Shown here one piece after another: positions 22,011 to 61,300 of a stretch of DNA of 64,000 nucleotides (its first letter is position 1; every line of letters begins with the position of its first letter). A program made the position numbers and the translations under genes. The stretch comes from Centroberyx gerrardi (lineage: Eukaryota > Chordata > Actinopteri > Beryciformes > Berycidae). The notes beneath the pieces were generated by a model, which made no database searches, was not told the origin of the DNA, and was given only the letters and a program-made list of their open reading frames with translations. The stretch lies in the NCBI RefSeq assembly GCF_048128805.1, contig NC_136012.1, positions 27,706,582-27,770,581 on the forward strand, given 5' to 3'.

Positions 22011-25000
22011 CCTCTCCCTCTCCCTCTCCCTCTCTCTCTCCCTCTCTCCCTCTCTCCCCCTCTCTCCCCCTCTCTCCCCCTCTCTCCCTCTCTCTCCCTC
22101 CCGTCCCCGGACCCTGTAAATCCACAAGAACCCGGTCACAGCAGATCCGTACCATGTGGTAGTGCTTCTTGGTGAGCAGCAGGATGCCGCCCACGTAGGT
22201 CTTGTAGTGGTAGAGCGGGTGCAGCTCGGGCGACGCCACGTGGAACGGCCCGTCCTCGGGGAAGCCGTAGTCCAGCGCGTCGTTCAGCGGCAGCAGGTCC
22301 ACGTCGTGCATCGCCAGGTAGTCCGTGTCGTTCCCGCTCTCCATGTAGCCCACGTTGATCAGAGACGCTCGGTTGAACCTGGAGCCAGGAAAACACTTTC
22401 TTTAATCTCCCCTCAGCTCGGATTTCTCTGAATTTCCTTTCCCCAGCACTTCTTTATCAGCCATGATCTTTCTATGGTCACAAGACTTTACTCCATCTAT
22501 TGTCAGGGAGCTGTGAGTTTAATACTACTTACTATAATATTTTCAGTTGAGTTTTATTAAAGTTACCTCAAGATTTATATCAACCTAAAAAGACAGGTAA
22601 ACTCTTCCTGCCAGGCTCAGAACAAAAATCGCCTTGAAAATTTATAAAATGGCTGTGAAATCAAAAATGAGGAGGCAAAAAAATGCACCCAATAATTAGG
22701 AATATCCTTTTTTTGCATTTCACCCTGTTCACATGTTTTCATTGAGTTGTCCTGTAGTCACAGGTGAATTTGACTACTGTCCCCTGTGGGCCACCATAGG
22801 TGAGTTGTGGGAGTCTGTGACTGGGCAAGTCTTTCCAGTGCATTCTGGGAGAGAAAAATGTATCGTTTTTTGATCAAAAAACAAGCGAGTTCGCAGCCTG
22901 AAGCAGCAGAAACTGTTGGCACCATGCAGCCAGCAGGAGGAGAAAACACCGACCAACACAAACCACTGAGTCAACACAAAATACCAAAAAACAATATGGT
23001 GAAAAAACAGATAGTAGAGGGAGGAAGAAGGACCGGTTAGGGACAGAGAGGCTTCTGGAAGGCCTGCTGCCAGTTTCCAGCAGTGGGAACGAAGTTAAAA
23101 CATGTTTATTTGCTTTATATTCAATGCAAATGTACTTAATAGTTCCCCCAAAAGCACCAAAATGTCCCTAAAAAGCAGATCAAGGGGACAAAACATGCCA
23201 TATGAAACAAAAGGTAACTTCCTAGCCTGCTTCCTGCAAATAAACATTTGGGGAAAGTGATTTTATTTGGATCCCCCCCCTCCCTTCCCCCTCACCTGTA
23301 GTGATCCACCTGGTTGATGATGAAGATCCTGTGGCGGATCTTCTTCTTGCTGAGGTAGGCGTGCATGAAGGGGACGAACACCAGCAGCTCCTCGAAGCGC
23401 TCCCTGAACGGGACGATGAGGGCCAGTTTGTGAGGCCCCCAGGTCGGGTCGTCCGCCGCGGACGCCTGACTGTCCGCCGGGCAGGGAGGCGGCGGCGGCG
23501 GCGGCGGCTGCTGATGCTGCGGGAGGCGGCCGCCCTCCAGCCCCGCGCCGGACATTTCCCCCGAACAGCTGAGCTGCAGCCAGAGCAGAGAGACGAGCAC
23601 CAGCACCATGCAGAGACCGAACAGCTTGTAGACCGTACACTTCCCCGACAGGAACCTGCAACACACACGCAATAGGGACGGGACGATATATCGCAATTGA
23701 ATATATCGTAATACAAAACTGTGACAGTACTTATGTTGTGTCAGGAACATGAATGGTGATATCAGCTCCATGTTATTCTGCTGTCAGGAACATGAATGGT
23801 GATATCAGCTCCATGTTATTCTGCTGTCAGGAACATGAATGGTGATATCAGCTCCATGTTATTCTGCTGTAGTAATCACTAACGAGACTCTTGACCATCA
23901 CAGTTCCACAAGCTCTCCATCCAAATTATATTATTGTCACTTTGTAATGACATTTTTAAATTGTTGTTTACATTCTAGCAGCCAATGGCATCGCTAGAAA
24001 GATTTGTGTCTCAGAAATAAACAGAATTCTACACAGTCAGACTTTGTCATGAACCCCATATCACGTATCGAATCGTATCGTGAGATAAACAGATCGCCCA
24101 TCATTCATTTCATTAAATTTAACTCATATTTAAAGAGGTAATCCACAAGATTCTTAACTGTTTACTTTGCTGTTGCTGCCAAGTGCTCATTGCTGCGGTG
24201 TTTTCTGTATTTTGTATTTTTGTCTTCATCTGTACCGAAAGTAATGTGTACCAACTACAGAAAACGACCGCAAAACGTAAGGGATTATGGGTAGAAGGAG
24301 ACGGATGTGGTTCTTCATGCTTGGAAAGTCTAGCAGAACAAAATGAAGTCTGGATTGATGCTCATATTCAGCTATTTCTTCATGTGTTCTTAACTGGTAT
24401 GAACACCACAGAAGAAGAGACAGACAAGTCCGTCATGTTAGATAAAGTTACAGAGACTGGAGTCAGATGACAGGCGACCAAAACTGTTGTTAACCAAAAC
24501 ATAACAAGGACAGGTGAGTTTTTGTTGGGAAACACAAATACAAACTGGAGAAGAAACTGACATGCAGAGCTGTGAGAACACACACTCCATCTTCATCTTC
24601 ATCTTCATCATCATCATCATCACTGGCAGTAAGGAGGCTTCAGCAACAGGTCTAGTAGTTAGTACTGGTAGGCTACTGGTGATTCATGCATCCAGACTAC
24701 AACCAAAACAAATGTCGCTGATGAATTGGTCTATTTTACAGGCTAACCTAATAACATCATTTGTTATATTTTTAAATATTTTTATGCTGCACATAGCCTA
24801 TTTACACATTTTAATTTATTTTCATATTTTTCAGTCATATTTCTTTGTCTCAGTATGCACTACTGCTATTTTTTTGCACATCCTCATAATGCTGTAGGCT
24901 AATTCATATATTTTCAAACTTTTCATTCATATATTTTTACTCATGATATTCCAAGGTGGTAATTGTCAGTTGCATTATGTGTAATACCAACCCAATTGTT

Positions 25001-49467: not shown

Positions 49468-52400
49468 TCCAAGTCTACAGTGTCTGCTGTAATCACGGCT
49501 GCACAATTAATCTTGTTTAATTATATTGCGATTTTTTTTAGAATATTATCATATTGGCAATAACGAAGCATTTAATTTCACTTTGAGTGGCAGCTGTTCT
49601 TCAAAATAGTCAATATGTTGATGTGAGATGCAATAAGTGAAATAAAATAATTTTGTCCCTCAAATCATGGAGATTAATAATCGTGATTAATAATTATGAT
49701 CACAGTATTGAGTAATTGATCATCTTTCAGGGTGTTGAAGGCCGATACGAAACCAATGTTTTTGGATTGGAGCTGCCAATATTCAGTGTTTTGTGCCGAT
49801 ATTCAGTGTCTTTGAATTTGACCATTTTCATGCCAAAATACATTACAATTATTCAAATTACTAAGTATTATATATATGTTATTAAGTATTCAGTGTTGGA
49901 AAAGCCTCTGAAACAGCATTTAGAGCATGGGACACTAAAACTCTCCACTGAAACCTAGAATGATGGTCATATCCATCATGTCAGAGGTGGACGGCACTGA
50001 CCGGCTGATATCCGATATTCAATAAAGGGTCAATATCGACATATCTTCACTGTTCTCCCCCAGGAGGAACCAGATTTCCCAGTAGACCTTGAGAACTGCA
50101 TCACTCTGGACGAGCTGGAGGAAGACGAGTCCGATGACCAAGGTCAGCAGAGTTCAGGATTCAATACAACACGATACGATGTGATCAATAAAACTTCAGT
50201 GACAACAAAGTCTGACTGAGCAGAATTCTGTTTATTTCTGAGACACACATCTTTCTAGCGATGCCATTGGCTGCTAGAATGTAAACAACAATTTAAAAAT
50301 GTCATTACAAAGTGACAATAATATAATTTGGATGGAGAGCTTGTGAAACTGTGATGGTCAAGAGTCTCATTAGTGATTACTACAGCAGAATAACATGGAG
50401 CTGATATCACCATTCATGTTCCTGACAGCAGAATAACATGGAGCTGATATCACCATTCATGTTCCTGACTAATGTTTTGGTTTGTCTTTTACAGATGGGA
50501 AAGACAGAGATGAACCCAAGGTAAGGAGGAAATATATACATATTTTAGCAGAGTGGGTTTAGTTAGATTGACTAGACGCGATACTCTCTGCTGACATGAA
50601 GAAACATTTGAGTGATTAGGTGTTTTTGTTGTGTTTGTCCTCCAGTCTCCCTCCAGCAGAGTGATCTACCTCAGAAACCTCCCCCGCCGCTTCTACACCG
50701 ACTCCGACTTTGTGAAAGTCATGAAGGGCTTTGGGAAAGTGGTGCGATATTTCCTCATCCGCAACCGCCAGGAGGTCAGAAGACATCCAGCTGTTATTTT
50801 GTTATGTTATGTTAAATACTATATATTTATACACTGAACAAAAATATAAATGCAACACTTTTGGTTTTGCTCCCATTTTTCATGAGTTGAAATAAAAGAT
50901 CTAAGACTTTCTCTCAAATTTTGTTCACAAATTTGTTTAAATCCGTGTTAGTGAGCACTTCTCTTTTGCCAAGATAATCCATCCACCTGACAGGTGTGGC
51001 ATATCAAGATGCTGATTAAACAGCATGATTATTGCACAGGTGTGCCTTGGGCTGGTCACAACAAAATTTGAGAGAAATAAGCCTTTTGTGTGCATAGAAA
51101 AAGTCTTAGATCTTTTATTTCAACTAATGAAAAATGGGAGCAAAAACAAAAGTGTTGCGTTTATATTTTTGTTCAGTATACGTCTTATGTATTATGCTCA
51201 TAGGGATCATTCAAGTTTCATGTGATCTTTTGGCTGGTATTGGTACCAGAGTCATCATGTTGGTATCCTGACAGCATGCTGTGTGTGTGTGTGTGTTGCA
51301 GGGCTTCATTGAGATGTGCAGCTCTTCAGAGGCTCTCAGAGCCGTCAAGGAGTTCAACTGTAAACCCGTCGAGCTCAACGGCTCCAAGCTCAGCGCACAG
51401 ATTTCCCACAAGTATCAGAGGCTCACAGTAGCGTAAGAACCTCCATCACAAACTGTAATCTGTTGTGTGTTTACTGGATTCATACTCAGGTCTGGAAAAG
51501 GAATTTCATCATTTCCAGATTTTTAAAAGTGTGGAAATAAAGTCTGGAAAAGTATTGTTCAGTTGCAATACACATGAAATTATTTGTCACTGTCTATTCA
51601 CTGTTGTGTCACAAATTGTGATATTAGTTGTGTAGAGTAATGTTCAGCTACAGAGTGATATGGTCACTATAGCTTTTTTGATTTGGACTGGTATGATGAG
51701 TGTATTTTTAAATTAAAATCTTGCCCAGTGGTTAATATATACTGATATCTGTCTGTGCATTCCAAGTGAGACTAAAAACTAAAGTTCTGTTCTGTGCTAC
51801 TTAATTATATTGAATTTTGTTCTGTCGTATGTGATTTTTCATGGCAGGTGGAAGGTGCAGTCGGACTGCGAGTCGGACGAGGAGCAGAGGAGGGAGCGCA
51901 GGAGCCGGGGCGGCAGGAGGAGCGACAGGAGCAGCAAGTCCAAAACCTCCGAGAGGGACGAGTCCGGCAGGAAGAGCTCAGAGAGAGAGGAGACGAGCAA
52001 GAAGTCTGCTGAGAGAAAAGAGTCTGCAAAAAAGACTCCAGAGAAGGAGATAGTAGCTAAAAAGACTCCAGAGAAGGAGATAGTAGCTAAAAAGACTCCA
52101 GAGAAGGAGATAGTAGCTAAAAAGACTCCAGAGAAGGAGGAGTTAACAACTAAAAAGACTCTAGAGAAAGAGTCAGTGGCCAAAAAGACTCCAGAGAAGG
52201 AGATAGTAGCTAAAAAGACTCTAGAGAAAGAGGAGTTAACAGCTAAAAAGACTCTAGAGAAAGAGGAGTTAGCGGCTAAAAAGACTCCAGAGAAGGAACT
52301 AGTGACTAAAAAGACTCTAGAGAAGGAGGAGTTAGCAGCTAAAAAGACTACAGAAAAGGATTTAGCAGCTGAAAAGACTCTAGAGAAAGAGTTACCACGC

Positions 52401-52791
52401 AAAAAGACTCCAGAGAAGGAGTTGGTTAAAACGACTCAAGAGAATGAGACGTTGCTAACTCCAGAGAAGGAGTTAGAAGCTGAAAAGACTTGTGAGAAGA
52501 CGGAGTCAGCAGCTGAAAAGACCCTAGAGAAGGCAGAGTCGGCTAAAAAGACTGCAGAAGATAAGGAGACTCCCAAAGTGCAGGGAGTTAGTCCGGAGGA
52601 GGTGGAGATGGAGGATCCAGAGCCGGAGCAGATCAGAGACGAAGCCACAGACGAGGCAGAGGAGCAGCAGCAGTCTGAACCTGCAGGAGGCGCTGTGGAG
52701 CCGCACAAACCCACTAAACCTGTTGGTAAGAAACCAGTTCAACCTGCCAGTTACAGAGCTGCAGACTCACCTTCTGTCTTTCTTACTGTTT

Positions 52792-52824
<33 letters not shown>

Positions 52825-54283
52825 TACTATAGCAGCACGCAGCAATACAGCAACCGGGCTCAGTCTAGCCATTTAGTCCTTATGGGAGAAAAAAGGAAAT
52901 GTAATTTTTTTGTATTCATTCAGAAGTTTTTGTAAGCCTATATAAAAGCTTATAATAATAATATAAAAATAAACTTTATTTCCAAAGTGCTTTAACAGTC
53001 GCATTAAAGCAAACATGAAACTCCCAAAATGAATTAAAACAAGGCACCATAAGCATAAAAAAAATAATTGTAAAATCAAGAGGATAAAAGACGTCGCATA
53101 AAAGCATTTTGCCTTTGACAGCCAAATACCTGCTCTGACATCACTGATTGGGGCGTGGCCAAAAGTGCAAAATGCTTTAGAGTTTCCACCCACAGACAGC
53201 AGTGCAACAGGGATTTTTTGACCCGTGTGATTTAGTGTTGATTTGCTCTTTAAACTGCCTGTATCTACACTGTGTAAAGCCTGGCTGAGTGCTAGCAGAG
53301 CGGCTGACTGGCTGTGTGTTCTCTGTAGGGGCGGAGTTTGTGCGCCCGGTCGTCGGATACTTCTGTAACCTGTGTCAGGTGATCTACGCCGACGAGGACG
53401 AAGCCAAGCAGCAGCACTGCAGCAGCCTGGAGCACTACCGCAGATACCAGGTCAGCTTCCCCACATCTTCCCCCCAGCTTCCCTCCAGCTTCCCTCCAGC
53501 TTCCCTCCAGCTTCCCTTCAGCTTCCCTCCAGCTTCCCTTCAGCTTCCCTCCAGCTTCCCTTCAGCTTCCCTCCAGCTTCCCTCCAGCTTCCCCCCAGCT
53601 TCCCTCCAGCTTCCCTCCAGCTTCCCTTCAGCTTCCCTCCAGCTTCCCCCCAGCTTCCCTCCAGCTTCCCTCCAGCTTCCCTTCAGCTTCCCTTCAGTCC
53701 AGCATGGAGCCTTCTGTCTTTTCATGTCCAGGGTCAAAGCAAGACACATGGGCAACTTTTTCATGGTATCCAGCGGTTCTTAAAACGGGTGACAAAGTCT
53801 TAAATGATCTAAATTTAAGGCCTTAAAAGTATGAAAACGTCTTAAATAAAAGTTATTTTTCACCATGTAATGTCAGGTTTCTCAGATGAATCCAGAACAG
53901 GTTAGTAGGTAAATCTGCATCTCGTCTGCTTTACTAAACACAGCTAATTAACTATTAATCTCCTGCTGTCCTTCTTATTCTGCCCGTTTTGTTTAGATTC
54001 AGCATTTTCATCAGCTGTTCAGTCTGCTTTTGACAGCTGTGTTTCTTTATTCTGGTTTTTGAACCAAAATAAGGCAGCATTAAAAAGATCTTGGATGGAT
54101 ATAGCGCATTTTGGAAGGAACTTCATTTATATAACTGTATTTTCATGTAGTTTTACAGTCTGATCAGATGCTTGTTAATGCAGGTTTACATCTGCTGTAG
54201 CTCCTCCCACCTGATCCTTATGGAAACCCTTCTCTTCTTCTGTTTGTCAGGAACACACAGGGAAAGACCCGTGGACCAGCTGA
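42240..54283 (+). CDS. Matrin-3-like nuclear RNA-binding protein with three RRMs
   Basis: Twenty coding exons give 1286 aa: 42240-43268, 43542-43603, 44577-44615, 44790-44872, 44959-44990, 45105-45227, 45580-45705, 46394-46510, 47187-47311, 47519-47775, 48185-48272, 48611-48792, 48918-49117, 50064-50142, 50495-50520, 50646-50774, 51302-51432, 51848-52725, 53329-53450 and 54251-54283. Phases agree throughout. A matrin-family helix motif (LLSSCGLEPDDL, then LPEDVLTIESLP) spans about residues 78-115. A U1-like zinc finger has C332, C335, H348 and H354. RRMs cover about 416-498, 499-579 and 857-943. Between them are RS- and acid-rich regions. A (K-K-T-P-E-K-E)-type repeat covers about 1002-1170, and the second finger has C1248, C1251, H1265 and H1271. 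The tail is short (EHTGKDPWTS). It is convergent with a second matrin-type gene. Human MATR3 has two RRMs. A fish 'matrin 3-like 1' gene is the likely equivalent; ZNF638 is a more distant alternative. A signal aataaa is at 54663. Confidence 0.9.
47945..48140 (+). mobile_element. Non-LTR retroelement-type tail fragments
   Basis: Contains gcactttattgatcccctgg and ggaaattcag, the usual wording of a fish LINE 3' tail, next to a 'ccctggaccccactttgaga' fragment of another repeat. It is in the intron before the exon at 48185. Confidence 0.45.
49374..49468. repeat. (AGT)n microsatellite
   Basis: About 31 uninterrupted trinucleotide units in the intron between exons 49117 and 50064. Confidence 0.97.
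50150..50470 (-). mobile_element. Family D transposon copy 3, nearly a whole intron
   Basis: Inverted relative of 23672-24101 and 32724-33052, with two 43-bp tandem units at its right end. The host intron is 50143-50494 (352 bp), so only about 8 bases on the donor side and 24 on the acceptor side are not element-derived. Confidence 0.82.
50833..51181. mobile_element. Tc1/mariner-type MITE
   Basis: Terminal inverted repeats cactgaacaaaaatataaat and atatttttgttcagta, flanked by TA, with an inner inverted repeat catttttcatgagttgaaat / 'caactaatgaaaaatggga'. This end sequence is one I recognise as a very widespread mariner-like MITE. It lies in the intron that splits the third RRM. Confidence 0.8.
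52796..52823. repeat. (AAT)n microsatellite
   Basis: Short trinucleotide run about 70 bases after the donor of the repeat-coding exon. Confidence 0.9.
53454..53697. repeat. 11-bp minisatellite of acceptor-like units
   Basis: About 22 tandem copies of cttccctccag with variants ccttcag and ccccccag. The array starts 3 bases after the donor of the zinc-finger exon ending at 53450. Each unit is a pyrimidine run followed by CAG, that is, a 3' splice-site-like sequence on the transcribed strand. Open frames through the array are a by-product of its composition. Confidence 0.95.
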
Positions 54284-55388: not shown

Positions 55389-58300
55389 TTACGCAGAAGA
55401 AGTCTTTTTCACTTTCTTGCTGCTCTGTGCTTTGGCCTGTTCCTTCTCCAGATGTTTCTGGAAGAGAAGGAACATGAAGGAAGGTTATGTTGCAGCAGGA
55501 AAAACACATCCAGGCACTCTTCCCATACAAAAAGTAAAAAGTAGGGCTGTGAATCAATAAAAAAAAATCTACTTATCAATCGCACAATTTGCTGTGATTA
55601 ATCAATCTTTTTGAAGCTTGTAATCATAGATATTTAAATGTAGAATCACCAAATTAATGTAGAATCAACACAAAGGAAGTTTATTTTAAATCAAACACTA
55701 TTGTTTAATGGCATCTTTTAATTGAAAACACAGACTCTCTTGTGAACTACAGATCAGTCTATCAGAACCAATTGCGTTTTTTTGTTTTTTTTGTTACGAG
55801 TTTAACATTTCAAATGAATAGCAAAAATGAACGCGTTAATTATCACAGCCCTAGTAAAAAGCCTTTATTATTTATTGGTTAACGCATACTAGGGTTGGGC
55901 GATATGTCAAAATTTTCCTATCGGCTACCGTCAGCCCAACAACCGGCGATTGCCGATATAGTCGCCGGGTGTCAGAGCGGCTAAGATTGTCACTACAATG
56001 TGAATAGCTGGTCCACCTTAAAGGTCAGTCCACCTTAAGTGAGCCTGGTCAGGTTAGCCATTGTCGCTAACTTCGGGGCTAACCCCCTTCACTTTAATGA
56101 AAAACTCAACTTCTAGTATGTAACGTTAGCTAACTAGAGAAAATGTCCGCTAGCCGTGATGCTAATTTTCGCTATGTTCAACTCCATTGACTTATGCTAA
56201 AAACGTTAGCGATCTAAAAGTCCGCTAGCTGCAACGCTAATTAGTGCCAAATCCCATTTGATTATGCTAAAGTGTTAGTGACTTAAAAACTGGATCTGAA
56301 ATGGGTTTGTCGCTGCCCGATCTGAGTTGAACATACCGAAAACTAGCATCACGGGCTAGAAGTGTGTGACGGTGAGGTCACACACACGCATATATTTATG
56401 TTATATATAACTGGTTCTTCGGATCACGTCGGAAATCAAGTGTGTTTATGTTTATGGTTGTGTTAAACGCCACTCTGGAAGGCGGAGTGAAAAGGCAACT
56501 GTGATAGAGAGGGTGGAGACGTGATGTTTCAATACGGGATAACGGCGCCCAACTCCAACAGCCAGTTCCTATTCGCGCACGCTTTGAATTGCGCTTTACA
56601 GGTTAATTATTTACCATTAAATTAGCAAAATAAAATGACAAAAATCGCCCAAAAATGGATGGACTCAGCCCATCGCCGATATATTCGTCCTATCGCCCAA
56701 CCCTAACGCATACACGTTAAAAATGTTTTAAAAGCGTTGATGCGTTGCAGCCAAAACCACGGGTGAATTTTGACGCCAGTAAGGAAGTGGCTGAAAGCAG
56801 CAGTTCCTCTAACGTCCGCTAGAGTCCGGCTCCAAAAAGACGCCAAACTCCATGCAAGTCAAAAGACCGCAACCCAACTTCTCACTCAAAATATAGTCAA
56901 TACATTTTTTCGACAAGAGGTTTTGGTCTCAGTAGCTAGTTTCACTTCTTCTAATGTGTGTCCTTATGGCGATTTTCAAAATAATTTCGTTATTAACGGG
57001 ATATAACGGTTATAAAACGGGGTTATTTTTCGAGTGATTGACAGGTCGCCGATTCTGGACCAATAGCAGGCGGCGCTGTGGTCAACCCTCAGCTTCGCTC
57101 CGGCTCCAAAAAATTTCAACATGGCGGCGCTCGTAAACCCAAACGTTTGGCTTCAAAACGGCCCTTCAGAAACCTGTGGGTGACGTCACACTCACTACTC
57201 CATCTGTTTATACAGTCTGTGGCTGCAGCACACAGCCTTCCTCACAGTGCACCTAAACACAGTGATTCTGATGAGCAGCAGTCTTCCTCACAGTGCACCT
57301 AAACACAGTGATTCTGATGAGCAGCAGTCTTCCTCACAGTGCACCTAAACACAGTGATTCTGATGAGCAGCAGTCTTCCTCACAGTGCACCTAAACACAG
57401 TGATTCTGATGAGCAGCAGTCTTCCTCACAGTGCACCTAAACACAGTGATTCTGATGAGCAGCAGTCTTCCTCACAGTGCACCTAAACACAGTGATTCTG
57501 ATGAGCAGCAGTCTTCCTCACAGTGCACCTATATAAACTGATTCTGATGAGCAGCAGTCTTCCTCACAGTGCACCTATATAAACTGATTCTGATGAGCAG
57601 CAGTCTTCCTCACAGTGCACCTATATAAACTGATTCTGATGAGCAGCAGTCTTCCTCACAGTGCACCTAAACACAGTGATTCTGATGAGCAGCAGTCTTC
57701 CTCACAGTGCACCTATATAAACTGATTCTGATGAGCAGCAGTCTTCCTCACAGTGCACCTAAACACAGTGATTCTGATGAGCAGCAGTCTTCCTCACAGT
57801 GCACCTATATAAACTGATTCTGATGAGCAGCAGTCTTCCTCACAGTGCACCTAAACACAGTGATTCTGATGAGCAGCAGTCTTCCTCACAGTGCACCTAT
57901 ATAAACTGATTCTGATGAGCAGCAGTCTTCCTCACAGTGCACCTATATAAACTGATTCTGATGAGCAGCAGTCTTCCTCACAGTGCACCTAAACACAGTG
58001 ATTCTGATGAGCAGCAGACTTCCTCACAGTGCACCTAAACACAGTGATTCTGATGAGCAGCAGTCTTCCTCACAGTGCACCTATATAAACTGATTCTGAT
58101 GAGCAGCAGTCTTCCTCACAGTGCACCTAAACAGTGATTCTGATGAGCAGCAGTCTTCCTCACAGTGCACCTATATAAACTGATTCTGATGAGCAGCAGT
58201 CTTCCTCACAGTGCACCTAAACACAGTGATTCTGATGAGCAGCAGTCTTCCTCACAGTGCACCTATATAAACTGATTCTGATGAGCAGCAGTCTTCCTCA

Positions 58301-61300
58301 CAGTGCACCTAAACACAGTGATTCTGATGAGCAGCAGTCTTCCTCACAGTGCACCTATATAAACTGATTCTGATGAGCAGCAGTCTTCCTCACAGTGCAC
58401 CTAAACACAGTGATTCTGATGAGCAGCAGTCTTCCTCACAGTGCACCTATATAAACTGATTCTGATGAGCAGCAGTCTTCCTCACAGTGCACCTAAACAC
58501 AGTGATTCTGATGAGCAGCAGTCTTCCTCACAGTGCACCATATAAACAGTGATTCTGATGAGCAGCAGTCTTCCTCACAGTGCACCTAAACACAGTGATT
58601 CTGATGAGCAGCAGTCTTCCTCACCTGCAGCTTGTCATAGTGCGCCTGGCTGCTGCAGTGAACTCTCTTAGCCGTTTCTTCATTGGAGTAAAACAGGAAA
58701 CAGACTCGGCAGTAATAACCCATCTTCACGTGTTCCACACCTGCAGCGGCGACACGTTTACAGACAGAAACATCAGATGAAACATTTACAGACAGAAACA
58801 TCAGATGAAACATTTACAGACAGAAACATCAGATGAAACATTTACAGACAGAAACATCAGATAAACTTCATGATCCTGTGGGGAGTCGAGTCGCTGCAGC
58901 AGCAAACAGTCTCAGGATACAGCAGGACAGAAGAGAGAGAACAGCACACTGGGGCGACTAACACTAGAATGTACTGAGTCGAAATATGAGAGCAAAGTGT
59001 GAAATATGAATAGCAGCAGGTATGTTGTTATTCATATTTCATAAACTTAGTTTCATGTCATGATTTTGCCACTTAATCTTTCGTTTATGTTTTTACTTTT
59101 TAACCACTTTCTCCTTTGAACACTTGCTGATTTTTATCTTTTATTTTACTATTCTTGTTTTTATGCCTTTTTATGAAACTCTTTGTAAACTCTGCTTTTA
59201 GATAACTACTTCCACTTCTGCTACTACTACTACTACTATTACACCTACTATTACTTCTACTATACCCACTACTACTGCTACTACTATTACTGCTACTATA
59301 AGTACTACTATGGATACTGCTGCTACTTCTACTTTTACTATAACTACTACTACTTCTATTGCTACTACTACTACTACTTGAATTTCTGATAGCAGCTCCC
59401 TCATATTCATGATAAGCTGTGAATTTGCTTCCCTGTACATTTTCTAACAAAATATTCTATTACAATGTAGAGTTACTAGAGCACAAAACCAACAGAATAA
59501 AACAACAGTGTGATGTGTTCAGATCATGTTCCTCACCGATGGGCCTGTTGGGCTCGTAGGGAGCGAGCGGCAGACAGGCGGCGCTGGGTTTGGTGTCGGG
59601 GGGCGGAGCCTCCGTCTGTCCGTTCTGACCGGCAGACGCCGCCTCCTCCTTCTCCTGCTTCACCTCCTGCAATTTGCACAATTTTTTTTTTTTAAAAACC
59701 TGCTGCAAAACCTTCCATTTTTGTTCACACTGAAAGAGTGTCAATGGTGTGTGTATTTTAATTTTGGTGTATGTTTACAGTCAATTAGTGCTGACACGCT
59801 CAGTCAATTAATCATTTTGTTGATCAACAGAAAATTAATCTATTACAATTCTGACAATCGATTCCTCGTTTTAGTCATTTATCAAGTAACAATACCAAAC
59901 ATTTGTTTTTTACAGCTTCATAAATTCTAATATTTGCTGCTTTTCTTTGTTTCATCTCATTATTAAATGAAGACTTTGTGTTTTCTGGCTGCTGGTCAGA
60001 CTGAGGAAGAAATCTGAAGAATCACTTTGGACTCTGGGAACTGTGATGGACATTTGTCATTATTTTTCACATTTTATAGACTAAATGAATAGTTGATTAA
60101 TCGAAAAAATAATTGATTGATAATGAAAAAAATTAATAAGCCTATATGAGTGTTTTCATCCTCCTCCTCCATGTGTCACTCACAGCATCGCAGCTCTTCT
60201 TGTCCGAGCCGCTCGGCTGATCAGACGCTTCAGGAATCGTCTCCTTCGTCTCTTTCTCTGCCGACTCTTCCTCGCTCTTCTGCTCAGCGCCGGTCGCCTC
60301 GCTGCTCTCCTCCTCCTCCTCCTTCACGTCCGTCGTCGTCTTCTCCTCCTCCTTCTCCTCCTCCTCCTCCTCCTCCTCCTCTGCCTCTTCCTCCTCCTCC
60401 TCCTTGGCCTTCTTGGTTGGAGGTTCGTCGGTGTGTTTGGAGGATTTGCCCGGCGTTCCGCTGCTGTCTCTCTTCGACGGCTTCTTGTCTTCAGGCAGCG
60501 TGGGTCGCCGATGTCTGGACGGACAGACAGAAGTGGCAATTCTTCTCAGCACAAACTAGGCTTAGACAGAAATATTGGTTTGCTGATATTGTCCTTTATT
60601 CCAAATTTATTGTAGAATTGATTAATACTACGCTGGCTGTGTATGAGAAGACCTAAACTGATTGACATTTGATCAGAAAGTATGCATCAATATGTTTATT
60701 ATTTTTATCATCAGGGTTTCACTGGAGAGTTTTAGTGTCCCATGATGGTCTGAATGCAGTTAGTGGGCAGCAGCAGTAGGGAAGGAAACTAACTTCTGTC
60801 TCGTAAAACCAAAACTTCACCGGCCACTTTCACTGTTTTAGTAGCCACCCAGATGTTCAGAGCAGAAAAAGTCTCTGGTGTGTTTTCTCACCCATATTTG
60901 AGCTGTTTGTACTTCCTGCTGACGTAGACGTTCAGACGCCTCCCTTGGATTTTCGGCGGGCTCACTTTGTAATCTTCGGCCATTTTCTCCGCGTCTTCTG
61001 CGTTCTCCATCTCAACGAAACACTGGAAAACACAAACAAACGTCAGCAGAGAATTTTAAAACTTCCCGTCGGCCGTCGCTGGGTAGAAGAGGTTTTGCTG
61101 CAGTACCTCTCTCTTGATCCGGTTGAGGAAATACTTCCTCACTTTCCCAAAAGGCTCCGCCAGCTTCAGGACCGTCTCGTCCGAGTATTTGATGTTGGGG
61201 ATTTGACCGATGTACACGACTCGACTGGAGCCGCACTGCAGGAGAAACACACCGGATTTAACGGATGACAGATTAAATGACAACAATAAGGTCAATAAAT

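What the first reader, a model, noticed from the sequence alone, without database searches (positions are those of the whole stretch)
57233..58740. Tandem array of about 30 copies of a splice-donor sequence starting exactly at the real donor
On minus, the exon 58625-58740 ends CTGCAG and its intron starts gtgaggaag. The same nine bases recur once in every 46-bp unit of the following 1.4-kb array, preceded by cact instead of gcag. The minisatellite therefore seems to have grown out of the 5' splice site itself and offers a ladder of decoy donors to U1 snRNA, 46 nt apart. Only the exonic side (CAG versus ACT) separates real from decoy. This could buffer or mislead splicing of the exon that encodes zinc finger 2.
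Basis: partly seen in the sequence, partly recalled or inferred. Interest (0 to 1): 0.72.

Follow-up and report, generated by a model that had tools for sequence, protein, structure and literature searches.

The report
Minisatellite beginning at a splice donor
A 1.4-kb tandem repeat in a fish-like genome begins exactly at the start of an intron of a matrin-3-like gene and repeats half of the splice-donor signal about 30 times; the copies are weak donors and it is most likely a harmless intronic repeat, though another gene of the same genome has a more striking array.

Summary
The ZF2 exon (58625-58740, minus) of a matrin-3-like gene ends CTGCAG and its intron starts GTGAGGAAG. That 9-mer occurs 31 times from 58624 to 57245: the real donor, then 30 copies, all preceded by TGCACT; 28 of 30 steps are 46 bp. 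The frame closes across three exons.

The functional reading is weak. Decoys score 5.4 bits against 11.3 and pair with U1 at -4.9 against -11.6 kcal/mol; three non-array GTs of the intron score higher. A decoy would end the protein at one stop in the first unit. Two of five paralogous introns have no array at the donor.

Donor-anchored arrays recur in this genome. Repeats start by +3 in 3 of 5 ZF2 introns against 0 of 80 control exon ends (post hoc). A PUF60-like intron has one from +5. A kinesin-light-chain-like gene has a boundary-spanning array with 27 perfect CAG|GTGAGG donors, of which only the first gives the normal frame. These resemble amphioxus 'mirages'.

Verdict: the given array is probably a neutral minisatellite; the class deserves a genome-wide count.

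The parts
58625..58740 (-). Exon encoding the C-terminal matrin-type zinc finger (ZF2), 116 nt, acceptor GCTGCAG|GTGTGG, donor CTGCAG|GTGAGG
   Evidence: open frame across three exons; PDB sequence match to the U1-C zinc finger at E 0.012; four related exons in the genome
57233..58624 (-). 46-bp minisatellite, 30.3 copies, starting at intron base +1; each unit begins GTGAGGAAG
   Evidence: TRF; unit parsing
55458..58624 (-). Last intron, 3167 bp, 44% of it the array
55389..55457 (-). Coding part of the last exon, [22 protein letters not shown]
   Evidence: acceptor CTTCTCTTCCAG|AAACATCTGG and frame
58757..58866 (-). 28-bp array, 4 copies, ending 16 nt before the same exon (not required for the finding)
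   Evidence: TRF; sequence
53453..53697 (+). 11-bp array, 22 copies, from base +3 of the intron after the ZF2 exon (53329-53450) of the convergent paralogue; a parallel case
   Evidence: TRF; sequence

Best explanation
This is an intronic minisatellite in the last intron of a matrin-3-like gene, most likely without effect on splicing. Its founder unit was the first 46 bases of the intron. It grew by slippage or unequal exchange between short direct repeats (the 9-mer GTGAGGAAG bounds the perfect copies on both sides), partly as pairs of two unit types. It did not spread into the exon because selection keeps the coding sequence and the CAG of the real donor. It is transcribed and removed with the intron, and the first donor is used because it alone has the paired exonic side. 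Shown: anatomy, frame, donor scores, absence at the donor of two paralogous introns. Inferred: mode of growth, neutrality and sole use of the real donor.
For: Near-perfect homogeneity over the whole unit, not just the donor part. Real donor 11.27 bits and -11.6 kcal/mol with U1; decoys 5.36 bits and -4.9; 323 of 7126 GTs outside the array (both strands of the window) score at least as high as a decoy (position weights recalled from human donors). The ACT before each decoy ranks 26th from the bottom of 64 trinucleotides. Two of five ZF2 introns have no array at the donor. The preceding intron starts with GTGAGGAA too and has no array there. A KLC-like gene carries 27 full-strength donors of which only the first gives the normal frame, so such arrays can persist in genes. 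Amphioxus arrays at exon-intron boundaries are reported not to disturb regular splicing. Folding of the donor plus units is weaker than shuffles (195 of 200 fold as well or better).
Against: The start at +1, and recurrence by +3 at 3 of 5 paralogous introns against 0 of 80 control exon ends, are more than uniform placement would give (one-sided Fisher 1.0e-4, or 0.0017 without the index case; the comparison was made after seeing the data). The far copy resembles the unit beyond the 9-mer only borderline (195 of 4000 random stretches as good), so the seed model is not proven. One source on amphioxus notes that repeated AG/GT signals could serve as cryptic sites.
Confidence: 0.8

Rival explanations
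1. Decoy-donor ladder: array donors are sometimes used. A decoy retains array sequence and ends the protein at [12 protein letters not shown] in the first unit. The first decoy would escape NMD (stop 8 nt before the junction); the second lies at the recalled 50-55 nt limit (55 nt) and the next four examined at 101 nt or more, so the array would lower the normal C-terminus.
For: Positions +1 to +9 are repeated exactly; frame and stop distances. A human minisatellite with multiple splice donors is on record (title seen).
Against: About 6 bits and 6.7 kcal/mol weaker than the real donor, and below three other GTs in the intron. No transcript data. The whole unit is homogeneous, so the constancy of the 9-mer is no sign of selection.
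Confidence: 0.07
2. Intronic U1-binding enhancer: the copies are not used as donors but bind U1 snRNP and help define the ZF2 exon, or shield poly(A) signals further down the intron.
For: A U1 site downstream of the PAH exon 11 donor enhances splicing at the natural donor (PMC5933811, abstract seen). Six AATAAA or ATTAAA hexamers lie in the intron downstream of the array.
Against: The copies pair weakly with U1 (-4.9 kcal/mol) and the real donor is strong; two paralogues lack an array at the donor.
Confidence: 0.05
3. Disarmed mirage: the founding duplication spanned the exon-intron boundary, so the copies first carried CAG|GTGAGG and later lost donor strength (CAG to ACT here; GTGA missing in the PUF60-like array).
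For: Exon tail AGCTGCAG resembles unit tail AGGTGCACT. In L113 the unit TTATCG-CTTTATTAACTTTAT resembles TCATCG|GTGACTTTAACAACTTTAT with GTGA missing (by eye). A boundary-spanning array exists in the same genome.
Against: The exon-tail similarity is not significant (520 of 4000 random 12-mers as good).
Confidence: 0.05
4. Assembly artefact: the array is collapsed, expanded or misplaced.
For: Near-identical copies are hard to assemble; no reads could be checked.
Against: Contig of 30 Mb, no N in the array as read, two interleaved unit types and private variants. The copy number may still be wrong.
Confidence: 0.03

Closest known systems
Amphioxus 'mirages' (Adh3, globins, TnC, PGBD5; PMC3087553 and PMC3902484, passages seen)
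   Same: Minisatellite-like arrays at intron-exon boundaries, on either side; homogenised centre, diverged edge; regular splicing reported undisturbed
   Different: Mirage units span the boundary. The index unit is intronic as far as can be shown. The KLC-like array of this genome does span it
Human interferon-induced transcript minisatellite that provides multiple splice donors (6-16/IFI6 by recall; Nucleic Acids Res 1995, 23:1854; only its title in a reference list seen)
   Same: A minisatellite at an exon-intron junction whose units carry donor motifs
   Different: Per its title the repeats supply splice donors; here the copies lack the exonic half and no use is shown
Repeats carrying AG/GT in the extra MHC class II B intron of perch-like fish and flounders (PMC4394517, passages seen)
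   Same: Fish intron length changed by short repeats that contain splice-site dinucleotides
   Different: 6- and 10-bp units, discussed as part of the growth of that intron
Minisatellites in sparid growth hormone introns 1 and 3 (mentioned in PMC3045353, passages seen)
   Same: Intronic minisatellites in fish genes, polymorphic in length
   Different: Position relative to the donor not seen by me

Membership tests
Intronic minisatellite | Head-to-tail units of roughly 10-100 bp inside an intron | tested here: met
Amphioxus-type mirage | Array at an exon-intron boundary | tested here: met
   starts at +1 of the last intron
Amphioxus-type mirage | Repeat unit includes exon sequence from across the boundary | tested here: inconclusive
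   exon tail against unit tail: 520 of 4000 random stretches as similar. Met by the KLC-like array on C6, which is not the index array
Amphioxus-type mirage | Normal splicing in spite of the array | not testable with these tools
   no transcript data
Multiple-donor minisatellite (IFI6 type) | Units carry competent donors | tested here: not met
   5.4 against 11.3 bits; U1 pairing -4.9 against -11.6 kcal/mol
Multiple-donor minisatellite (IFI6 type) | Several array donors used in transcripts | not testable with these tools
   no RNA data

The most novel reading that the evidence does not exclude
5' splice sites can nucleate tandem-repeat growth in this vertebrate genome, giving a class of donor-anchored arrays: the index array, its convergent paralogue, a third ZF2 intron, a PUF60-like intron and a KLC-like gene with 27 identical full-strength donors. 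If so, the spliceosome of these genes must pick the first of up to 27 equal donors by position alone, and the ZF2 intron of matrin-3-like genes is a hotspot.
Probability: 0.12. Interest if true: 0.65.

Novelty: new member of a known kind. Interest (0 to 1): 0.33.

Why it matters
The index array shows how the exonic half of a donor can set one real site apart from 30 intronic copies identical over +1 to +9. The KLC-like array found on the way is a stronger natural test: 27 donors with the same nine bases, where only the first keeps the protein. If donor-anchored arrays proved enriched genome-wide, they would link splice-site sequence to minisatellite birth.

Tried and rejected
CAGGTGAGG ladders genome-wide: the pattern CAGGTGAGG-GTGAGG-GTGAGG gave 237 + 322 hits against 1 + 1 for the reversed control. 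Hits overlap within arrays, the C4 array alone fills most of the printed part, and the list is cut off within C6. I fetched all 10 distinct loci of the printed part. One array (C6, L115) lies at an exon donor; this showed only after its flank was fetched, and I had first counted it as having no exon. Seven (L114, L116, L118, L119, L120, L121, L123) show no clear exon in the 150 bases before the first motif, though L114 has an open 50-codon frame there. L117 shows none before its first CAGGTGA. L122 follows what looks like an exon of a nucleobase transporter (recalled) but TRF reports no array.

Array edges in the window plus a 200-kb sample (264 kb, 3267 N; 190 arrays, 86 with period of at least 9, 11 of these with at least 4 copies): donor-like motifs of 7 bits or more at 11 edges with the intron side inward against 4 mirror edges. 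Eight of the 11 read GTGTGT, supplied by GT-rich repeats. Of five outside the window that I translated, none is a clear exon. Inconclusive.

Other: folding gave no unusual structure. Pfam gave nothing above cut-offs for the ZF2 and RRM pieces and nothing for the KLC-like exon. PMC4039745 and PMC2688266 (passages) concern C. elegans and Nothobranchius repeats and did not bear on donors here. One search missed the upstream exon and was replaced. Full-donor CAGGTAAGT ladders could not be counted.

Full report
What is there. The window lies on contig C16 of an unnamed 779-Mb genome in 278 contigs, fish-like by content (my judgement). On the minus strand runs a matrin-3-like gene (name recalled from its RRM and zinc-finger sequence). 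Three exons read in one frame...[12 protein letters not shown] ending at 59537, [38 protein letters not shown] at 58740-58625, and [22 protein letters not shown] from 55457. The only PDB sequence match of the last two is the zinc finger of U1-C, E 0.012. The last intron is 3167 bp, 44% of it array.

The array. TRF gives 57233-58624, period 46, 30.3 copies. GTGAGGAAG occurs 31 times there: at the real donor (after CTGCAG) and 30 times in the array (after TGCACT each time). Of 30 complete units 28 are 46 bp, one 47, one 44; 15 are of one type, 12 of another, often alternating, and 3 carry private changes. The far copy at 57245 diverges after the 9-mer. A 29-base part of the unit is found 29 times in the genome, only here.

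Are the copies donors? With position weights recalled from human donors the real site scores 11.27 bits and pairs with the U1 5' end at -11.6 kcal/mol; each decoy scores 5.36 bits and -4.9 kcal/mol. Of 212 GTs in the intron three outside the array beat the decoys (56614, 57195, 56336); 323 of 7126 GTs outside the array in the window do as well or better. Reading on past the real donor gives [12 protein letters not shown] within the first unit, so a decoy would end the protein there. The stop lies 8 nt before the first decoy junction, 55 nt before the second and 101 to 239 nt before the next four examined. The finger would stay intact, but the last 22 residues would be replaced by 12.

Relatives. 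A protein search found five ZF2-type exons in the genome (six matches, one of them the last exon of the index gene). The two C3 copies (L011, L014) have a donor and no tandem repeat in the first 220 intron bases (L011 has one 2-copy repeat about that far in). The convergent copy in the window (exon 53329-53450, plus) has CAG|GTCAGC and an 11-bp, 22-copy array from +3. The C23 copy (L010) has GAG|GTACAC with (AC)30 from +3 and a (TC)48 run near its acceptor. So 3 of 5 start a tandem repeat by +3.

Base rate. From the listed RRM_1 matches I took 80 of 87 eligible exon ends and searched about 220 intron bases each with the same TRF settings as for the five. A donor of at least 6 bits was found at 51 of 80; the rest are weaker or uncertain, and some are near-duplicates of each other. 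Arrays starting by +3: 0 of 80. By +15: 2 of 80, (AC)15 at +11 (L076) and a 20-bp array from +5 in L077, an exon of a PUF60-like gene (name recalled) whose codon closes on the next exon (TTCATCG|AGTATGAT) and whose array runs about 310 bp. One-sided Fisher values are 1.0e-4 with the index case and 0.0017 without. The comparison was made after seeing the paralogues and includes an AC microsatellite.

A stronger case elsewhere. A pattern search for CAGGTGAGG ladders led to G000:C6. There an exon reads MLSGEEILCSTQQ...SLERIELGLGEAQ, matching kinesin light chain 1 in the PDB at E 4.6e-10. It is followed in frame by VMMALSAHLGSLEAEKQKLRAQ after a 1241-bp intron. An array from 29502774 to 29501698 starts 34 bases inside the exon: its units repeat the exon tail plus the intron start, and CAG|GTGAGG occurs 27 times, 37 to 48 bp apart. 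Only the first donor gives the KLC frame; donors 2 and 3 shift it, and donors 4 to 27 retain a stop. All three paralogous KLC exons that one search found end at the same place (GGCACAG|GT or GCGAGGCACAG|GT) without an array in the bases fetched. This fits the description of a mirage, with full-strength donors. Which donor is used is unknown.

Origin of the index array. The perfect copies are bounded by the 9-mer on both sides, which fits growth between short direct repeats. The donor octamer alone is not enough: the preceding intron starts GTGAGGAA too (59536) without an array there. A boundary-spanning founder is not supported for the index array (520 of 4000 random 12-mers as similar; the far copy beyond the 9-mer, 195 of 4000).

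Literature. Known relatives are amphioxus mirages (passages), the interferon-induced minisatellite with multiple donors (title only) and fish MHC class II B intron repeats (passages). U1 binding downstream of a donor can enhance an exon (PAH, abstract). My searches listed no paper that I recognised as describing these arrays; subscription journals are mostly not held.

Judgement. The given array is most likely a neutral minisatellite, unusually placed, with weak decoys.

Noticed in passing
G000:C6:29502774-29501698 (-), L126, L115, L127: A KLC-like gene carries a boundary-spanning array with 27 CAG|GTGAGG donors 37-48 bp apart; only the first keeps the frame, and three paralogues lack the array.
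   Followed up: partly
window 53453-53697 (+): The 11-bp array after the ZF2 donor of the convergent paralogue is a ladder of acceptor-like motifs: six pyrimidines plus CAG occur 21 times, 11 nt apart.
   Followed up: partly
window 58757-58866 (-): Four copies of a 28-bp unit end 16 nt before the same exon, so it is bracketed by arrays on both sides.
   Followed up: partly
L113 215-524 (G000:C13:31421115-31421424): A PUF60-like exon has a 20-bp minisatellite from +5 of its donor; the unit resembles the exon-intron boundary with GTGA missing (by eye).
   Followed up: partly
G000:C4:1407153-1408423 (-): A 1.3-kb array of 9-bp units CAGGTGAGG/CAGGTGAAG, a ladder of donor-like motifs; no clear exon at its start, though a 50-codon frame is open there.
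   Followed up: partly
window 23739-23870 and 50382-50469: The same 43-bp tandem unit occurs in opposite orientation about 26 kb apart (3.1 and 2.0 copies).
   Followed up: no
window 55890-56705: Inverted TAGGGTTGGGCGATA ends bound an 816-bp stretch in the last intron, probably a DNA transposon or MITE.
   Followed up: no
window 59536, 58740 and 58624 (-): The preceding donor (GTGAGGAAC), the ZF2 exon start (GTGTGGAAC) and the ZF2 donor (GTGAGGAAG) are nearly the same 9-mer; perhaps protein and U1 constraint, not tested.
   Followed up: no
L010 1381-1477 and 1605-1664: The C23 ZF2-type exon is bracketed by (TC)48 near its acceptor and (AC)30 at its donor.
   Followed up: partly
window 52029-52558 (+): A coding repeat (KKTPEKE..., unit about 30 bp) in a plus-strand open frame near the convergent paralogue.
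   Followed up: no
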